NCBI GenBank assembly: GCA_029261295.1
Contig: JAJDBP010000002.1
Span: forward strand, 434,001-498,000
Length of the DNA stretch: 64,000 nt
Reading direction: 5' to 3'
Source of the DNA: Nitrospirales bacterium
GTDB taxonomy: Bacteria; Nitrospirota; Nitrospiria; Nitrospirales; UBA8639
In this document: positions 45,592 through 54,091 of the stretch, in pieces
Position numbering within the stretch: the stretch's first letter is position 1
Layout of the letters: each line of letters opens with the position of its first letter
The notes under the pieces: model-generated
Database searches by the model: none
The model's input: only the letters and a program-made list of their open reading frames with translations
Told to the model about the DNA's origin: nothing
Translations under genes and position numbers: made by a program

Positions 45592-46167
45592 TTACCAGTA
45601 GCGAGGTCGGCCGGTGTCAATGTGGAGAAAACCGCGCGAGCGATAATATCCGACTCCCCCGAGTTTCAGTCTTACCGCAGCACGCTTAACAGAAGAGAGC
45701 CGAACCCCAGGGATATAAAAGTCCATGGCTTTCCCTTGGGTGTGAAAGCTGCTCAGAGCAGCGCCTTGTTCGTGGAGAACCAGTTTAAAGTTAAAGGATG
45801 GAGAACGATAGCCAGAGGAAACATGAATTTCATTCCCGCGCGCAGAATTTTTTTCAATCAAATTTAAATATTCGAGTAATCGGATATCCATCCGTCGTAC
45901 GTTCTTCGTGTGATTGCAACGAAGAAGATAATTGATGTCTTTGAGAGCTCCACGGTCATAGCGGCCGGAACGTGATCGGTATTGTACCGTCAGTCGTTCA
46001 TCTCGATAGACATTGTAGAGTCGAATGCGCCCTTCCGGGAGAGCGGAGGACCATGCTGTATCTGGGAAAAGCAGTCGGCTTCCCAGAAGGGCCATGCCTG
46101 CCAGTGAAGACTGCAAGAAAAACCTTCTAGACCATATGTCTGTTTCGTTTTGGGTATCCATGTCCAT
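45592..46167 (-). CDS. DUF882/YcbK family protein, Tat-exported
   Basis: 191 residues. The N-terminus SRRFFLQSSLAGMALLGSRL is a twin-arginine signal. The mature domain has the M15-like (D-Ala-D-Ala carboxypeptidase fold) pattern EIHVSSGYRSPSFNF, SSFHTQGKAMDF and GFLHIDTGRPRYW, with the zinc-type His/Asp/His. YcbK-type proteins act on peptidoglycan; substrate not shown. Sits alone between the anti-sigma gene and a gap. Confidence 0.88.
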   Translation of the reverse strand: MDMDTQNETDIWSRRFFLQSSLAGMALLGSRLLFPDTAWSSALPEGRIRLYNVYRDERLTVQYRSRSGRYDRGALKDINYLLRCNHTKNVRRMDIRLLEYLNLIEKNSARGNEIHVSSGYRSPSFNFKLVLHEQGAALSSFHTQGKAMDFYIPGVRLSSVKRAAVRLKLGGVGYYRSRGFLHIDTGRPRYW

Positions 46168-46574
46168 CAGCCGATGTTTTTCAAAAAGGGGGTAAGAGGA
46201 TAAAACACAAGAATCTTACGAAACCCCTTGATAAAAGGTCAATTCGTCATCGTTGGTAAAAAGAAAAACACCTAAAAAGAAATAACTAATTTTTTGAGAT
46301 AGGTTTTAGCTGAAATCTTCACTCTTTTTTCAATAAGTTACCAAATTCTTTAATGTTTTCATCACTCAAAACAAATCAATCTGCTTGATACATAATTCCC
46401 TTCCTATTTCCCTTCGGATTACTTGGTAATTTTATTTCCCTCATCACAATCTCTTTGGATTTTATAAGGCCACATATTTTTATGGATACGAGATGTATTC
46501 TGAAAGGATTTGGAGAGTCATGCCATTTCCTCCCATGAAGCGGCATGGGGCCGTGGATCGAAAGGAGGGGAGTT
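46168..46574. other. AT-rich gap upstream of the VIT-VWA gene
   Basis: About 400 bases between divergent genes, clearly richer in A+T than its surroundings. It should hold promoters for both, but I could not assign boxes reliably. Strong AAAGGAGG for the VIT-VWA gene ends it. No riboswitch core or RNA gene seen. Confidence 0.45.
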
Positions 46575-49049
46575 ATGGTTGGCAAAAGTTGTAGGACAAG
46601 AGTTTTGGGATGGGCTCTGGGGGGAAGTCTGGTTGGAGCGCTGACTCTGTTGGGTGGAGGATGGTTTGGGTTTGAGTCCATTTCTGCTCCGGTGGCTTAT
46701 GCAAGTGCCGAATGGGTAGGTGATGAATCCGGGGCTTTAGTAGGGATTGATGATGAGGGAAAGCTGACGCAGGCTTTTCCGCTGAAACACACCAATGTTG
46801 CTATTCAGGTCAGCGGGCCACTTGCGCGGGCGCAGGTGACTCAGCAGTTTGAAAATCCCTATTCCGAGAAAATTGAAGCGGTCTATACCTTTCCACTTCC
46901 GCAGAACGCAGCGGTGGATAATATGACGCTGACCGTTGGCGATCGGGTGGTGAAAGGCACGATCAAAAAACGAGAAGAAGCGCGGGCCATTTATGAAGCC
47001 GCGAAACGTAGAGGTAATGTGGCTGGTTTGTTAGATCAGGAACGCCCCAATATTTTTACCCAATCAGTGGCCAATATTCTTCCAGGAGAGAAGATTTCCA
47101 TCACGATAAGTTATGTACAGACCTTGTCGTATGACGGTGGAACATATTCGGTCGTCTTTCCCATGGTAGTAGGGACGCGGTATATACCTGGCCAACCCAT
47201 TTCCCAAGAGCTACCAGCGCAAACCTTAGGAGGCGGTTGGGCATATGACACCAACCAAGTTCCTGATGCTTCTCGTATTACGCCTTCCGTTCTGAAACCA
47301 GGGACTCGATCCGGACATGATCTGACCCTATCCGTAAAAATTGATGCAGGTGTGCCAATACACCAGGTTCAGTCAATGACGCATGAAATTGTGGTGAGCA
47401 ATCCTAAGAAATCGCAAACGGCTGTTTCTCTCAAAAAAGAAGCGACCATTCCCAATAAAGATTTTATCCTGACGTATGCTGTAGCAGGCCAAGATATTCA
47501 TGATGCGGTGCTGACTCATCGAAATGGGAAGAATGGGTTTTTTACTCTGCTGTTGCAACCACCGGATCGTGTAAAGACGGATCAAGTCACGCCAAAGGAA
47601 TTGGTGTTTGTCTTGGACACCTCAGGATCGATGTCGGGGTTTCCATTGGATAAGGCCAAAGAAACCATGCGTCTCGCCATTGATGGGCTGAATCCACGCG
47701 ATACCTTTAATCTCATCACGTTTGCGGGGGATACGCATATTCTATTTCCCGAACCCGTTCCAGCCACGCCATCGAATGTGCGCAAAGCCCAACGCTTTTT
47801 AGAATCGCGCAGAGGGGGTGGTGGCACAGAAATGATGAAGGCCATTCGAGCGGCGTTAGATCCAAGTGATTCCCAGGAACATCTGCGAATTGTCTGTTTT
47901 ATGACCGATGGCTATATCGGCAATGATATGGCGATTGTTGGGGAAATTCAAAAACATGTCAATGCTCGCGTTTTCGCGTTTGGGATTGGTTCCAGTGTTA
48001 ATCGTTTTTTGTTAGACAAGATGGCGGAACATGGCCGTGGCGAGGTGGAATATGTGGGATTGCAAGATGATGGATCGTCGGCCGCTCGTCGATTTCATGA
48101 ACGAGTCCAACATCCCTTGCTCACAGATATTTCAGTGGACTGGGACGATCTGGATGTGTTTGAGGTCTATCCCAAGCGATTGCCCGATCTGTTTAGCGCC
48201 AAACCCTTGGTCGTGACGGGACGATATACGACCCCTGGAAAAGCGACCATTCGGCTACGAGGAAAAGTTGCCGGGCATTCAGTCGTGCGCAAGATTGAGG
48301 TGGACTTCCCTGGCTTTGAGCCCGAACATGATGTCTTAGCAACATTATGGGCACGTACGAAGATTGCCGATCTGATGGCACAAGATTACAACGGGGTTCA
48401 ACAAGGAAATCCCAAGCCTAATATTCGCAAGGCGATCACACAACTGGGCTTGGACTATCGATTGATGACTCAGTTCACCTCATTTGTGGCTGTCGAAGAA
48501 TTAATTATCACCGAAGGCGGACAACCGCGACGAGTAGAAGTACCCGTCGAATTGCCTGATGGCGTCAGTTATGAAGGCATCTTTGGCCGTGATGATCAAC
48601 GGCAAGCTGGTTTCCGCAATCGTGCCATGAGGCCTGCGGCTAAAATGAGTAAGAGTCTTCTTGGTGGAGTAGTCGCTCAAGAAGCCTACAGTGCAGCCCC
48701 GCCAGTTATGGCTGATAGGCTAGAGGAAGACCGTTCCATGAAAAGCCTCAATGAGCCTCTGTCAAAATTTGATGCGGCCTTGTTGACTATGGTGGACAAA
48801 AAGAAAAAAGGAAAGGCCTTCTCTTTCGACGAGTCAGAAAAGCTTCAGGATGGAAAAGCCTTGGTCCAGGTCTGGCTAGCAGATACAAAAGAAGAAACCT
48901 TGTCTCAACTAAAGGCGTTGGGCTTCAAATCTGTGGCACAACCCAAATCAGGCCACCTGGTCATCGGGTACATCCCTGTCGAACAGCTAGAAGCGCTAGC
49001 CAAGCTATCCATTGTTCGCTACATAACTATGCAACCTACCGCAGCATAG
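46575..49049 (+). CDS. VIT and von Willebrand A domain protein
   Basis: About 824 residues from ATG 46575 (AAGGAGGGGAG just upstream). Signal peptide/anchor, then a VIT domain (about 55-175; AQVTQQFENPYSEKIEAVYTFPLP and IFTQSVANILPGE), then VWA with the MIDAS motif LDTSGSMSG near residue 345-355. The C-terminal 100 residues after a variable linker hold a small folded domain (FKSVAQPKSGHLVIGYIPVE). It resembles inter-alpha-trypsin-inhibitor heavy chains. Some bacterial homologues are sortase targets; here no sortase motif is visible. A terminator follows. Confidence 0.9.
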   Translation: MVGKSCRTRVLGWALGGSLVGALTLLGGGWFGFESISAPVAYASAEWVGDESGALVGIDDEGKLTQAFPLKHTNVAIQVSGPLARAQVTQQFENPYSEKIEAVYTFPLPQNAAVDNMTLTVGDRVVKGTIKKREEARAIYEAAKRRGNVAGLLDQERPNIFTQSVANILPGEKISITISYVQTLSYDGGTYSVVFPMVVGTRYIPGQPISQELPAQTLGGGWAYDTNQVPDASRITPSVLKPGTRSGHDLTLSVKIDAGVPIHQVQSMTHEIVVSNPKKSQTAVSLKKEATIPNKDFILTYAVAGQDIHDAVLTHRNGKNGFFTLLLQPPDRVKTDQVTPKELVFVLDTSGSMSGFPLDKAKETMRLAIDGLNPRDTFNLITFAGDTHILFPEPVPATPSNVRKAQRFLESRRGGGGTEMMKAIRAALDPSDSQEHLRIVCFMTDGYIGNDMAIVGEIQKHVNARVFAFGIGSSVNRFLLDKMAEHGRGEVEYVGLQDDGSSAARRFHERVQHPLLTDISVDWDDLDVFEVYPKRLPDLFSAKPLVVTGRYTTPGKATIRLRGKVAGHSVVRKIEVDFPGFEPEHDVLATLWARTKIADLMAQDYNGVQQGNPKPNIRKAITQLGLDYRLMTQFTSFVAVEELIITEGGQPRRVEVPVELPDGVSYEGIFGRDDQRQAGFRNRAMRPAAKMSKSLLGGVVAQEAYSAAPPVMADRLEEDRSMKSLNEPLSKFDAALLTMVDKKKKGKAFSFDESEKLQDGKALVQVWLADTKEETLSQLKALGFKSVAQPKSGHLVIGYIPVEQLEALAKLSIVRYITMQPTAA

Positions 49050-49100: not shown

Positions 49101-49389
49101 TGTCATTTTTGCAAGGTTAAAACCGTAATCCCTCACTTCTATCATTTCCGATATTGGTTATCAGGAATCTAACTTTGGTATTAAGTGTGGATGCAAGCCA
49201 CAAATGAAAGAATATGTATGATGGATTGAAGAACTGGTGAATAGTCAAGATTCCCTAATCTTGAAGTGGTTTAAGTCTTGTTTTATCTTCAGGTCCGTAA
49301 TTAACATGTATCGTTTCTACTAGAAGGGTTGTGAAAAATAGTATGGAGTGTTTTTCTTTAAAAACATGGATACTATGAAAGGCTTACAG

Positions 49390-50361
49390 ATGGACTTCTT
49401 TTGTAATCGTAGCCTAGGGATTTTGTTGCTTTCCCTTCTTTTTCTGTTGCAGGCGTGTGGGATTACGAACTCTCACATTGACGGGCAATTGAATGTGCTA
49501 CGGGCTCCATCTGAGCCTATAAGCGATATTAGGTTCTTAGAAGAAAAGACTGTGAACTTGGAAGATGTAATTTTTGTTCCCCGGCCAGATGAGGACTTTT
49601 CCCTGAGTTTGAAAGAAAGATCTGTAGCTAGGCTAAAAAGTTCTGTCGCAGGGTTTAAACAAGGGGGGATGGTGGGTGCTGGGTGGATGGGTGAAATTTT
49701 TTGTCATTCAAGTTCGGGAGGTCAAAGTGTTAATTCTTGGGAAGGAGTCCTTTTCGTGGTCCTCATGTGTCCGACTATGATCTTGGGGGGAGTACTTGTT
49801 GGGGGTTTGGTCGGAGGAGTTGGTGGTGCAGTTGTAGGGCCGAAGTCAGAAACTTCCACAGATCTTCAATTGCACTCTCTGATTAATTCCCCCAAAGAGT
49901 TGAGATACATTATTTTTGCAAGCGAGGTGAGCAAGAAAATTGAAGACCATCTTATTCAGCTCACATCGAACAATGATCCCACTTCTGTTGACTCACCCCA
50001 TGTTGTTCGTTTCAGTAGGGACAAGAAACCAAAAAATTTCATGACAATTGAACCTGTCCAAATTGGCTTGATTCAGGTCGGACAAGATTCGACGGAGAAA
50101 TATGAACTCAGTATGAAGTTTCGAATAGTTTTCTCAGATACCAGTCAGATCCCCTGGGCGATTGAAGAGATTGAGGCCAAATTGGGTGAGTATCGATATG
50201 AACGATGGGGTTCAGGGAACGGGCAATTGTTGCGTGAGGGATTGGAACTAGGTGCTCACGACATTGCCACACAGATTCTGGCCGAATTCCGGAAACACGT
50301 GACTTCGCTTGAAATAGCAGAATCTGTAGGCACGGAAGATCCGCTTTCCTCTACCCCCTAG
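49390..50361 (+). CDS. Lipoprotein with glycine-zipper segment
   Basis: About 323 residues from ATG 49390 (AAAGG seven bases before). The signal peptide ends in the lipobox LLQAC, so the mature protein starts at lipidated Cys. A glycine-zipper GGVLVGGLVGGVGGAVVG near the middle suggests oligomerisation or membrane insertion. The rest has mixed alpha/beta character with no family I recognise. A 7-bp hairpin (49246-49263) lies in the gap upstream; otherwise I see nothing in 49101-49389. Confidence 0.7.
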   Translation: MDFFCNRSLGILLLSLLFLLQACGITNSHIDGQLNVLRAPSEPISDIRFLEEKTVNLEDVIFVPRPDEDFSLSLKERSVARLKSSVAGFKQGGMVGAGWMGEIFCHSSSGGQSVNSWEGVLFVVLMCPTMILGGVLVGGLVGGVGGAVVGPKSETSTDLQLHSLINSPKELRYIIFASEVSKKIEDHLIQLTSNNDPTSVDSPHVVRFSRDKKPKNFMTIEPVQIGLIQVGQDSTEKYELSMKFRIVFSDTSQIPWAIEEIEAKLGEYRYERWGSGNGQLLREGLELGAHDIATQILAEFRKHVTSLEIAESVGTEDPLSSTP

Positions 50362-50375
50362 TTTTTCCTGTTCGT

Positions 50376-50447
50376 TTAAAACGGGGCTTGGCCAGCGCGG
50401 AGTTTGGTGAGGGATTCTTTGACGAACGCGAGGTCCTGACTGCCGGG
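50376..50447 (-). pseudogene. Relic of a second ccmI 3' end
   Basis: On the minus strand these 72 bases read PGSQDLAFVKESLTKLRAG then QAPF and stop: the last 23 codons and stop of a ccmI gene. The intact ccmI ends identically at 53168, about 2.8 kb away. The two copies differ at eight positions, and all eight are synonymous. The match stops abruptly upstream of the Pro codon. It is the leftover of a diverged but functional ccmI, marking one edge of the three-gene insert that follows. Confidence 0.85.
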
Positions 50448-50690
50448 GTACTATTTTCTCCTGTTATTCCTGCAGGTTATTAAAAGGAATCCATCTGTCT
50501 ATGCGCACCTCAAAAAAACCAATCGAATTTTGATTTTCCACTCCAAAACTTATTTCACATTCATTCCGTTTTGTGATTTTCTTGCACAGTAACGACTGTT
50601 GGATTCTCCTCGCCTGTGGGTTGGCCACTTCACGCCGATAAGTGAAAGGACCTAATACATCTCTTGTTAGTTTTTTATGGTTTGATTGCT
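50448..50690. other. Gap between the ccmI relic and the first membrane gene of the insert
   Basis: Past the ccmI match at 50448 there is no further similarity to the intact ccmI. The region has no supported gene. A TTG at 50664 would extend the next gene by nine residues. Confidence 0.45.
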
Positions 50691-51578
50691 ATGGATGAAA
50701 TTGCTGAAAGCGTTTCTGTGAAAAAAATCTCTATCCAGGGGACGATTCAAGAAACTCTCGAAATCTGTTGGCAACATCGTAAGGTCTTAGCACTTTGGAT
50801 CGTTGGCTGTACCATTTTCACGGGAGGTTTTTGCTACCTCATTGAGTATTCTTCTATTCAACCTAGCTTAACCTATGGGAAATGGTCCTCTATTTGGTTC
50901 AGAGTACCTTTTGTCTTCTTGGGGATTTTTGTTTCTGTCATTGTCCCTTTAATGATTTGTGCTCGATTTTCAGTTTTTTGTCATCGTCTCGTTTTGGTTG
51001 ATAAGAAATATTCATCTATTTCCCCGTTTTTCTTTAGCAAACGAGAGTGGAGGTTCTTGGGATGGGATTTATTTTTGGTCGCGGGCGTACTTGTGATTGG
51101 TGTTGTGGTAATGACAGTTGGTGCTCTTGTGCTGCAATTCATGGGAATTCTTTTCGCGCCGCATGGCCACTCATTTTTGATCAGGGCAATTGTAGATAGC
51201 TACCTATTCACGGCTTTGTCCTACGGATTGGGTTCCTATGCTCTTGCTGGATATTGTCTAGTCCTTCCAGCAACAGCCTTAGATCTTAAGCCTTCTTTGG
51301 CATGGTCATCGGAACAATCCAAAGGGAATGAATTGAGCCTGGCTGTATTATTTGGGGGCCTGCCATTTGCCTTTGGGTTTTTGTACTGCCCGCCTTCCCT
51401 TCTGACCTGGTTGCAAATTGATCAGTTGATGGTTGTGAAGCATGTGATTCGACCTTTTCTTGTGTATTTGGTGACTCCCGTCATAGTAATTGCCATATCA
51501 ATTGCATTCCGTGAACTTACCAATTGGATTCCTATTGCCCAGCTTTCCGAATCCGCCAAAGTGGGAAGCATGAGTTAA
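50691..51578 (+). CDS. Six-helix membrane protein, paralogue 1
   Basis: About 295 residues from ATG 50691. A short cytoplasmic N-terminus (TIQETLEICWQHRKVLALW) is followed by five or six membrane helices. The end AISIAFRELTNWIPIAQLSES is nearly the same as that of the gene at 52216. The two also share a WQHRK/WDHRH entry to the first helix, a CHR segment and a (S/K)(E/Q)QSKGN/TKGN loop. No family name recognised; overall pattern resembles DUF975/glycerophosphoryl diesterase-type membrane domains. One of three plus-strand genes between the ccmI copies. Confidence 0.75.
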   Translation: MDEIAESVSVKKISIQGTIQETLEICWQHRKVLALWIVGCTIFTGGFCYLIEYSSIQPSLTYGKWSSIWFRVPFVFLGIFVSVIVPLMICARFSVFCHRLVLVDKKYSSISPFFFSKREWRFLGWDLFLVAGVLVIGVVVMTVGALVLQFMGILFAPHGHSFLIRAIVDSYLFTALSYGLGSYALAGYCLVLPATALDLKPSLAWSSEQSKGNELSLAVLFGGLPFAFGFLYCPPSLLTWLQIDQLMVVKHVIRPFLVYLVTPVIVIAISIAFRELTNWIPIAQLSESAKVGSMS

Positions 51579-51637
51579 TGAGGGAAATTATATTCAAAGA
51601 TTTTTTTCATAGAAGTTCTAAGGAAGGGGAGGTGAAA

Positions 51638-52162
51638 GTGAATTGTAAAATACTGAATAACAATGTTTCCTATGTAGTGAAAACATTATTAGTAAGCTGT
51701 GTGCTTATTTTGGCTTCTCCCTTGCCAATTTTTGCATATGAAAAAATGTGGGATAGTAGTGGATTTGAACCAGAAGAATTTTCCTTAATTCTTCAGCTGT
51801 CTAAATCTGAATGGGAGCAGGTGGCAACTGAAATGGCAAGGGATGAGGGCTCAAATGGACGGGTAGAGAATTCCGAGGGTAGCCTGGAGTTAATTATTGT
51901 TAATTCTAATCGTAACTCGAGACTTTCTTTTCTGCCTTTGTATATGAATGATGGCGAATCCTCAAAACCTTTCGCCCTGAAAGTGGGAATTCATTTTACG
52001 AGGCAGTCGATGCTAGTGAAATACCAAGGAAATTTTACAGAGAGGGCGATTGAAGAATTTCGAGAAGTGCTTGGTCCAGAATATATGGTCACTGGCCACC
52101 ACGATTCCAGTAGTCCGTCTTGGGATGGGGTGGAGTTGGAAATCCAATCTAATGTTCCGTAA
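51638..52162 (+). CDS. Small exported protein of unknown function
   Basis: 174 residues from GTG 51638, chosen because GGGGAGGTGA lies right before it; the frame is also open from ATG 51578, which overlaps the upstream stop. A signal peptide (TLLVSCVLILASPLPIFA) leads into a polar periplasmic domain of 130 residues ending in YMVTGHHDSSSPSWDGVELEI. No family recognised. It lies between two paralogous membrane-protein genes, which suggests the three products act together. Confidence 0.65.
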   Translation: MNCKILNNNVSYVVKTLLVSCVLILASPLPIFAYEKMWDSSGFEPEEFSLILQLSKSEWEQVATEMARDEGSNGRVENSEGSLELIIVNSNRNSRLSFLPLYMNDGESSKPFALKVGIHFTRQSMLVKYQGNFTERAIEEFREVLGPEYMVTGHHDSSSPSWDGVELEIQSNVP

Positions 52163-52215
52163 CTAATTTTAGAATATTAAGAATAATCGGTGAGTCCAAT
52201 TTTTAGGTTAGCCGT

Positions 52216-53046
52216 ATGAATATTCCCCCAATAAACTCTTTTCCAAACGCCCTCAATGTTAGGGCCATTTTCAAGGAAGCTTTTGGTTTTGCCTGGGACC
52301 ATCGGCATGCTTTTTGGTGGTGGATTTTTGTTGGTGCGGTTCTGACGGGGTTGGGGGATTTAGTCGGGGAATTTTCCTATGGGGAGGAAGGCTGGGGTTT
52401 AACAGGCTTTCCGTATTTCGCGGCCATATTTTTGGCCCCGATACCTGGTTTATTAGTTTTTGTGTTGTTAGCTGTTTACTGTCATCGTACATTTCTTATT
52501 TATCATGGCGGTAAATCCCTCAATCTCAAATTTTTCTTTACAGAAAGGGAACGGAAGTTCTTTGTTTGGATTCTTGGAATCTCTTTATTTTGCGCCTTCA
52601 TTACCATGCCAGGAGTATTCATTGTGGTAACAATTTGGGATTCCATAATTGAAATTTTTCCAGAAGGATTCTGGGAGGACACCTTTATTGGCGATTTATT
52701 TGTGGTTTGGGTATTTCTATTTCCTTTTTACTACGTTTTTGGAAGATGGGTTTTAGTGTTTCCTACCATTGCAATAGATCAGGAGCCTAGAATCGGCTGG
52801 TCTTGGAAACAGACAAAAGGTAATGACTGGCAAATGTTTGTTTTGGTGGGATTCCTTCCGTTTACCGTCGGAAATCTATGGCTCCTATTGCCATTCCTTG
52901 GACTAGCTGAATTTCCGGTGCTTAGTGCCTTCATTTCTACATTTGCCCTGTTTCTTTTTACACCGGTGGAAGTAACTGTGATATCAATAGCCTTTCGTGA
53001 GCTCACTAATTGGTCTCCATCCTCACAACTTCCTGAATCGACATAA
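52216..53046 (+). CDS. Six-helix membrane protein, paralogue 2
   Basis: 276 residues, same topology as the gene at 50691 and the same C-terminal box (VISIAFRELTNWSPSSQLPES). RAIFKEAFGFAWDHRHAFWWW opens helix 1. The sequences have diverged well beyond the ends, so the duplication is old. The gene ends 121 bases before the end of ccmI, on the opposite strand. Confidence 0.75.
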   Translation: MNIPPINSFPNALNVRAIFKEAFGFAWDHRHAFWWWIFVGAVLTGLGDLVGEFSYGEEGWGLTGFPYFAAIFLAPIPGLLVFVLLAVYCHRTFLIYHGGKSLNLKFFFTERERKFFVWILGISLFCAFITMPGVFIVVTIWDSIIEIFPEGFWEDTFIGDLFVVWVFLFPFYYVFGRWVLVFPTIAIDQEPRIGWSWKQTKGNDWQMFVLVGFLPFTVGNLWLLLPFLGLAEFPVLSAFISTFALFLFTPVEVTVISIAFRELTNWSPSSQLPEST

Positions 53047-53145
53047 TTTGCACGAAATGGTTCAAGAAAGATGGATGCCCGCCCGCTACAAACTGCGAGC
53101 ATGACGAATTGGAAGGTAGAGTGTTTATTTTAGGTTGAGGCGGTT

Positions 53146-53177
53146 CCCGTTTTAAGGCAGTTATTGCTTAAAACGGG
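53146..53177. terminator. Hairpin between convergent genes, made from a ccmI tail copy
   Basis: CCCGTTTTAAG (53146-53156) pairs exactly with CTTAAAACGGG (53167-53177) around a ten-base loop. The right arm is the end of ccmI itself, including its stop codon. The left arm is an inverted copy of the same 11 bases. It could stop transcription from both sides. Confidence 0.55.
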
Positions 53178-54091
53178 GCTTGGCCAGCGCGAAGTTTGGT
53201 AAGAGATTCTTTGACGAACGCCAAGTCTTGGCTGCCTGGTTCCATGTTTTGTGCGGCAAGCGACCAGGCTTCATCGGTTTCTTGCTTTCTGTCTAAATAC
53301 CAGAGGGCGATGCCTCGATACCAATTGACGGCTGGTTGATTGGGCAAGTCGGCGAGGACCATATCAAAATGTTTGAGGGCTTCTTGGAAGAGTTTGGGGT
53401 CATCGATTTTTCGCGAGTCAATTAAGAGAACCCCATAGTTATACCGGGCTTCATGCTGTTTGGGATCTAATTCTAAGGCTTTGGCCCAGGCCTTCTGGGC
53501 CTCTGCCGCGCGTCCTAAGGCTTGATAGGAGCGCCCCGCCATAATTTGTCCTTGTAAATCATCGGGGTTTTCTTTCAACCGGGCTTCTAACTTCGCGACC
53601 ATTTCCATCGGATTGGGTCCGCCACCCATTTCCGCTTCGACGGCCATGAGCTTTTGGGCAGCTTGAATTTGCAAGATGCTATAAATCCCGACAGAAGCTA
53701 TTAAGACCACTATTCCCGATGCGATGGCCGAGAGCCAACCCTTTTGTTTCGGGGCGGCTTCTTGAGTATGGCTGCTATCGCCGTCTCTCCCATCTTTCAG
53801 TATCTCTAAGCGATCTAAAATGTGGAGCAGCCGATGTTCGTCCGTGGCTTTGAGGCGTTCATAGTCGGTCTTAGCCATCCTGCCTTGTGCAAGTTCCATT
53901 TCTAACTCTTGTAAAGATTGATTCAGGACTCCACGTTCAACCTGCAGGTCGGCATATTCTTGTTCTTGGTTATCGTCTAACCCAAAGGAAATGGGGGAAG
54001 GGTCTCTCCGCCAAAATGGGAGGGTTAGGGCAAACAGCACAATGCTGATGACGATGAGAAGCGGAGTAATAAAGGCAATGATCGGAGGCAT
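53168..54091 (-). CDS. ccmI: Cytochrome c biogenesis protein CcmI (TPR)
   Basis: 307 residues. Two membrane helices: the first at the N-terminus (IAFITPLLIVISIVLFAL) and the second near 125 (GIVVLIASVGIYSI). Between them is a cytoplasmic, coiled-coil part (QVERGVLNQSLQELEMEL). The C-terminal half is TPR repeats (GRSYQALGRAAEAQKAWAKAL, ARYNYGVLL). CcmI hands apocytochrome c to the heme ligase CcmFH. Last gene of the ccm run; 16 bases follow ccmH. Confidence 0.93.
   Translation of the reverse strand: MPPIIAFITPLLIVISIVLFALTLPFWRRDPSPISFGLDDNQEQEYADLQVERGVLNQSLQELEMELAQGRMAKTDYERLKATDEHRLLHILDRLEILKDGRDGDSSHTQEAAPKQKGWLSAIASGIVVLIASVGIYSILQIQAAQKLMAVEAEMGGGPNPMEMVAKLEARLKENPDDLQGQIMAGRSYQALGRAAEAQKAWAKALELDPKQHEARYNYGVLLIDSRKIDDPKLFQEALKHFDMVLADLPNQPAVNWYRGIALWYLDRKQETDEAWSLAAQNMEPGSQDLAFVKESLTKLRAGQAPF

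What the first reader, a model, noticed from the sequence alone, without database searches (positions are those of the whole stretch)
50376..53239. Relic of a second ccmI with only synonymous differences
The 72 bases at 50376-50447 repeat the end of ccmI (53168-53239). Eight differences are all silent, and 23 codons plus stop are kept. That pattern requires the relic to descend from a ccmI that was under selection while diverging, so it probably came from a related strain. The three plus-strand genes in between then arrived with or through that recombination.
Basis: seen in the sequence. Interest (0 to 1): 0.75.

Follow-up and report, generated by a model that had tools for sequence, protein, structure and literature searches.

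The report
Recurrent gene insertions behind ccmI
The 72-base fragment is a displaced copy of the end of the ccmI gene, a scar of foreign genes being inserted right behind ccmI; the same kind of scar occurs in several related nitrite-oxidizing bacteria, so the end of ccmI looks like a recurring entry point for new genes that carries no recombination enzyme of its own.

Summary
The 8 differences are all synonymous, and 23 codons plus the stop are kept. The copy is not translated, because an in-frame TAG lies two codons upstream. The inference that it descends from a ccmI under selection holds; the two copies are as far apart as the ccmI genes of sister species.

The main result is that this is not a single accident. 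Five of 27 related genomes with enough sequence behind ccmI carry such a copy (a sixth is doubtful). All lie downstream, in the same orientation, and end at the stop codon, 33-339 nt long and 0.1-17 kb away. Complete genome G002 carries at least two, separating different inserted genes. Among 615 genes tested in two genomes, only ccmI and one borderline gene show this.

Best reading: ccmI's 3' end is a recurrent insertion point, where foreign segments enter by recombination anchored in the ccmI tail and leave the displaced tail as a scar, as in Vibrio T6SS effector-immunity arrays, but with ccmI's product unchanged. No recombinase was found. That the three genes arrived together is only partly supported: two have syntenic relatives without a scar in G019; the third is unique here.

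The parts
53168..54091 (-). ccmI, cytochrome c maturation TPR protein, 307 aa, last gene of the ccm operon
   Evidence: ORF; NCBIfam TIGR03142 cytochro_ccmI 28.7 bits against a 29.3 cut-off; Pfam TPR_CcmH_CycH 1.7e-9; synteny with ccmH and neighbours in 16 genomes
53168..53239 (-). 3' end of intact ccmI that is duplicated
50376..50447 (-). displaced ccmI tail (relic), 23 codons plus stop, 5'-truncated, untranslated
52216..53046 (+). c9-alpha, multi-helix membrane protein of an unnamed family, 276 aa; orthologues next to ccmI in G002 and G019 and behind the relic in G011
   Evidence: no Pfam or NCBIfam family
51524..52162 (+). ORF with a signal-peptide-like start (true start probably near 51630); found in no other of 48 family genomes
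50691..51578 (+). c9-beta, paralogue of c9-alpha; orthologue in G019 in the same order behind ccmI
49348..50361 (+). c18, lipoprotein-like gene directly behind the relic; distant relative (26%) directly behind relic 1 in G002
46545..49049 (+). VIT/VWA protein, conserved far boundary of the variable region in most same-genus genomes

Best explanation
The 3' end of ccmI is a recurrent insertion point in this Nitrospirales family. DNA carrying a ccmI tail and new cargo recombines with the resident ccmI tail. One junction lies in the ccmI tail, so ccmI stays intact. The other lies inside or at the start of a second copy of the tail, so a 5'-truncated tail ending at the stop codon is left beyond the cargo. 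In this genome the cargo is the two c9 membrane-protein genes and the gene between them. Shown: the repeat, its silent differences, the same geometry in at least four other genomes, stacking of two or more scars in G002, and near-uniqueness of ccmI among 615 genes. Inferred: that RecA-type recombination does it, either a one-sided homologous join with an illegitimate other end (homology-facilitated illegitimate recombination) or single crossover of a circle; that the relic in this genome is the older resident tail; and that the three genes entered in one step.
For: Relics downstream, same strand, ending at the stop codon: G011 (117 nt, 16.9 kb away, E 4.7e-26), G000 (3.5e-18), G002 twice (3.8e-6 and 0.017); G047, another genus (339 nt, 84%, E 3e-105); G033, another genus (E 1e-4; 27/33 against 19/33 for the next best position). 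In G002 the two relics are the top two stop-anchored matches of all positions in the downstream stretch searched (about 13.6 kb), both strands. G002 order is ccmI - c9 - relic - c18 - relic - c9 remnant - toxin/antitoxin, while G019 is colinear but lacks the segment with both relics. In G011 the relic lies directly before c9-alpha, which touches ccmI in G002 and G019, as expected if 17 kb was pushed in between. Locus-specific: of 615 genes, 3 same-strand downstream tail copies, two of them ccmI; no 5'-head copies upstream. Downstream DNA is swapped independently of ccmI: G018/G009 ccmI 97% with downstream 59%, G019/G002 ccmI 90% with downstream 92%; G002/G019 c9-alpha has half the synonymous change of ccmI (0.10 against 0.21). 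No tyrosine integrase within 160 kb of ccmI, none found in the cargo examined. ComEC, needed for DNA uptake, is encoded.
Against: If recombination were generic, other operon ends should show scars; only ccmI does, so something local is unexplained. Two genome pairs switch identity within about 9 nt of the stop codon, which is more precise than random crossovers would usually give. The intact tail of this genome shows no clear sign of being foreign. 72 nt with 11% divergence and a longest identical run of 24 nt is short for homologous recombination. No donor is known.
Confidence: 0.6

Rival explanations
1. Site-specific insertion: cassettes without their own enzyme are inserted by a recombinase acting in trans at an attachment site formed by the last bases of ccmI (about CCGTTTTAA), as integrative elements do at 3' ends of genes.
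For: All scars end at the stop codon with the same orientation, at one locus, in at least three genera. Identity changes within about 9 nt of the stop in G002/G019 and G018/G008. Cassettes stack next to ccmI.
Against: No recombinase in the cargo; nearest tyrosine recombinase about 163 kb away. Scar lengths vary from 33 to 339 nt. A tail carried by an element would be nonfunctional and should decay, yet this relic has no amino-acid change.
Confidence: 0.22
2. Local duplication of the ccmI tail within this lineage, later separated or altered by gene conversion.
For: Relic and intact end share the last 24 nt and the otherwise rare GCG codon.
Against: A neutral copy should have taken amino-acid changes; 8 of 8 silent is about 1e-5. 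Most of the 8 differences lie on the intact side relative to relatives. Nothing left of the relic is duplicated on its right, except in G002.
Confidence: 0.1
3. Chance resemblance or assembly error.
For: None found.
Against: E 3.5e-18; 516-kb contig; same geometry in complete genome G002 and in the 3.36-Mb contig of G047.
Confidence: 0.02

Closest known systems
Effector-immunity arrays of Vibrio cholerae T6SS (sequential displacement, PMC5361080)
   Same: Incoming DNA anchored by an upstream conserved gene region; older downstream gene ends and neighbours are shifted outwards into an array; homology-facilitated illegitimate recombination is proposed; no integrase known.
   Different: There the displaced gene is the variable toxin itself. 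Here ccmI is a conserved housekeeping gene whose protein end does not change, and only its neighbours turn over.
Rhs C-terminal displacement and orphan tips (cited in PMC5361080)
   Same: Truncated 3' gene ends left downstream in the same orientation.
   Different: The Rhs tips differ in sequence and are toxins; the ccmI tails are the same sequence with silent changes.
Integrative elements at 3' ends of protein-coding genes (e14 in icd type; from own knowledge)
   Same: The gene end is rebuilt with silent changes and a displaced end lies beyond the insert.
   Different: Those encode an integrase and have a fixed attachment core; here no integrase was found and scars vary tenfold in length.
Integrons
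   Same: New units added next to a fixed point, older ones pushed outwards (comparison also drawn in PMC5361080).
   Different: No integron integrase was found nearby; attC sites were not searched; inserts hold up to 17 kb.

Membership tests
Displacement arrays formed by homology-facilitated illegitimate recombination | Conserved anchor gene upstream, 5'-truncated ends of it left downstream | tested here: met
Displacement arrays formed by homology-facilitated illegitimate recombination | Stacking, older scars farther out and more decayed | tested here: met
   G002 relic 1 (E 3.8e-6) nearer than relic 2 (E 0.017); one genome only
Displacement arrays formed by homology-facilitated illegitimate recombination | Intact anchor end is donor-derived | tested here: inconclusive
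   6 of 8 sites favour the relic as resident, no excess of private changes in the intact tail
Displacement arrays formed by homology-facilitated illegitimate recombination | DNA uptake and RecA-dependent insertion | not testable with these tools
   ComEC present; function not testable
Integrative element at a gene 3' end | Integrase gene in the element | tested here: not met
Integrative element at a gene 3' end | Direct repeat of the gene end flanking the insert | tested here: met
Integrative element at a gene 3' end | Fixed attachment core | tested here: inconclusive
   Homology always runs to the stop codon, but relic length varies from 33 to 339 nt
Integron | IntI integrase and attC sites | tested here: inconclusive
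   No tyrosine integrase within 160 kb; IntI not separately modelled and attC sites not searched

The most novel reading that the evidence does not exclude
ccmI's last bases are a natural attachment site for an enzyme-less cassette system, moved in trans by an unknown recombinase, that lets marine Nitrospira-type bacteria exchange genes behind ccmI in an integron-like way.
Probability: 0.2. Interest if true: 0.75.

Novelty: new variant of a known kind. Interest (0 to 1): 0.45.

Why it matters
Many insertion hotspots of bacterial genomes lack any mobile-element gene, and how genes enter them is seldom visible. Here the displaced ccmI tails are scars that record the side of entry, the order of events and the kind of donor, in a lineage of nitrite oxidizers with no genetic tools. 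The locus could be used to test whether such hotspots are made by transformation-type recombination or by a hidden site-specific enzyme.

Tried and rejected
Chance and assembly error: rejected. General genome-wide process: rejected for the 615 genes tested. Integrase in the island or nearby: not found. Intact tail clearly foreign: not supported by a private-site count. Further decayed tails in other intergenic stretches of the window: none above shuffles. A tail copy beside the c9 genes of G013, which lie elsewhere: none. Function of the c9 family: no Pfam or NCBIfam match; the AlphaFold model from two sequences is poor (pLDDT 50), so no fold search was run. L093 beyond 10 kb: record not held. 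The G038 scar (23/36, next best 21/36) is left as doubtful.

Full report
What was checked. The window lies at bases 434001-498000 of a 516-kb contig of a 4.06-Mb genome of the order Nitrospirales. The named relatives found are Nitrospirales MAGs. G001 in the same genus has the exact length of 'Ca. Nitrospira allomarina VA' (4,553,057 bp; PMC10579370). The repeat is exactly as described: 50376-50447 against 53168-53239, 64 of 72 bases, all 8 differences silent, 23 codons and stop kept, with an in-frame TAG just upstream of the fragment. If changes fell at random, about 24% would be silent, so 8 of 8 is about 1e-5. Their distance equals that between sister species.

The wider pattern. A profile search with ccmI tails over the downstream regions of 16 same-genus genomes found the fragment here (E 3.5e-18), a 117-nt tail 16.9 kb behind ccmI in G011 (E 4.7e-26) and two tails in the complete genome G002 (E 3.8e-6 and 0.017). 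In other genera of the family, G047 has a 339-nt tail 3.3 kb behind ccmI (84% identical, E 3e-105) and G033 a 33-nt tail 139 nt behind it. G038 has a doubtful one. Every one is downstream, on the same strand, and ends at the stop codon. Among 48 family genomes searched by protein profile, second copies appear in G000, G011 and G047; the shorter ones need DNA-level search.

Anatomy. In most same-genus genomes ccmI is followed, after a variable stretch, by a VIT/VWA gene (window 46545-49049). In G013, G012, G001 and G006 the two are adjacent (empty state). In this genome the stretch holds c9-alpha, a unique ORF, c9-beta, the relic and c18. A tree of the c9 family shows that c9-alpha here belongs with the copies next to ccmI in G002 and G019 and next to the relic in G011, and c9-beta with the second copy in G019. 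The family is rare (6 of 48 genomes), and 7 of the 10 copies lie behind ccmI. G011 thus looks like ccmI - c9-alpha with 17 kb pushed in between, and the tail scar stands where ccmI used to end. In G002 the order is ccmI - c9-alpha - relic 1 - c18 - relic 2 - c9 remnant - toxin/antitoxin pair, while the colinear G019 lacks the segment holding both relics. These are stacked events, the farther relic being the more decayed.

Specificity and mechanism. The same test on 615 genes of this genome and G002 gave three tail copies, of which two are ccmI, and no head copies. The downstream sequence does not follow the ccmI phylogeny: G001, G009 and G018 have ccmI 96-97% alike but largely dissimilar downstream sequence (0.51-0.59), whereas G019 and G002 have ccmI 90% and downstream 92%. 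c9-alpha of these two shows half the silent change of ccmI, so it probably moved after the species split. No integrase was found in the inserts, and the nearest tyrosine recombinase is about 163 kb away. ComEC is present. I conclude, as inference, that foreign segments enter by recombination anchored in the ccmI tail. Homology-facilitated illegitimate recombination is the nearest described mechanism and was proposed for Vibrio effector arrays (PMC5361080). The near-exclusive use of ccmI and the breakpoints within about 9 nt of the stop in two genome pairs keep a site-specific enzyme acting in trans as a serious rival.

What is not shown. Which end in this genome is foreign; whether the three genes entered together; the donor; the function of the c9 and c18 proteins.

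Noticed in passing
window 53146-53177: Perfect 11-bp inverted repeat CCCGTTTTAAG / CTTAAAACGGG spanning the ccmI stop, between convergent genes; may be a terminator, or related to the insertion site.
   Followed up: partly
L032:6383-20000 and L033:1-3000 (G011): The 17-kb insert behind ccmI holds a TPR outer-membrane-like protein, a 2772-aa repetitive protein and a large WD40 plus caspase-domain (Peptidase_C14) protein.
   Followed up: partly
L040:6870-7085 (G002): 5' remnant of a second c9 gene, with its upstream region running into a stub that resembles the start of relic 1; suggests the c9-plus-tail junction was inherited and re-imported.
   Followed up: partly
G002:C1, about 2819476-2820375 (offset 379475-380375 in the 400-kb stretch L128-L147): The only other gene with a stop-anchored 3' tail copy downstream (29 nt, 86%); not identified.
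   Followed up: no
window 46545-49049: VIT/VWA protein scores 550.6 against a cut-off of 551.65 for TIGR03788 'marine proteobacterial sortase target protein', outside Proteobacteria; a matching sortase was not looked for.
   Followed up: no
window 45592-46167: A Tat-signal-like 191-aa gene between the VIT/VWA gene and the next conserved gene; other genomes have different genes there, so this is a second variable spot.
   Followed up: no
L086 (G041), 0.2-0.9 kb behind ccmI: IS3-type transposase genes directly behind ccmI.
   Followed up: no
L045 and L047 (G018, G008): First 60 noncoding bases behind ccmI are identical although the ccmI tails differ at about 11% of sites; points to exchange with a breakpoint at the stop codon.
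   Followed up: partly
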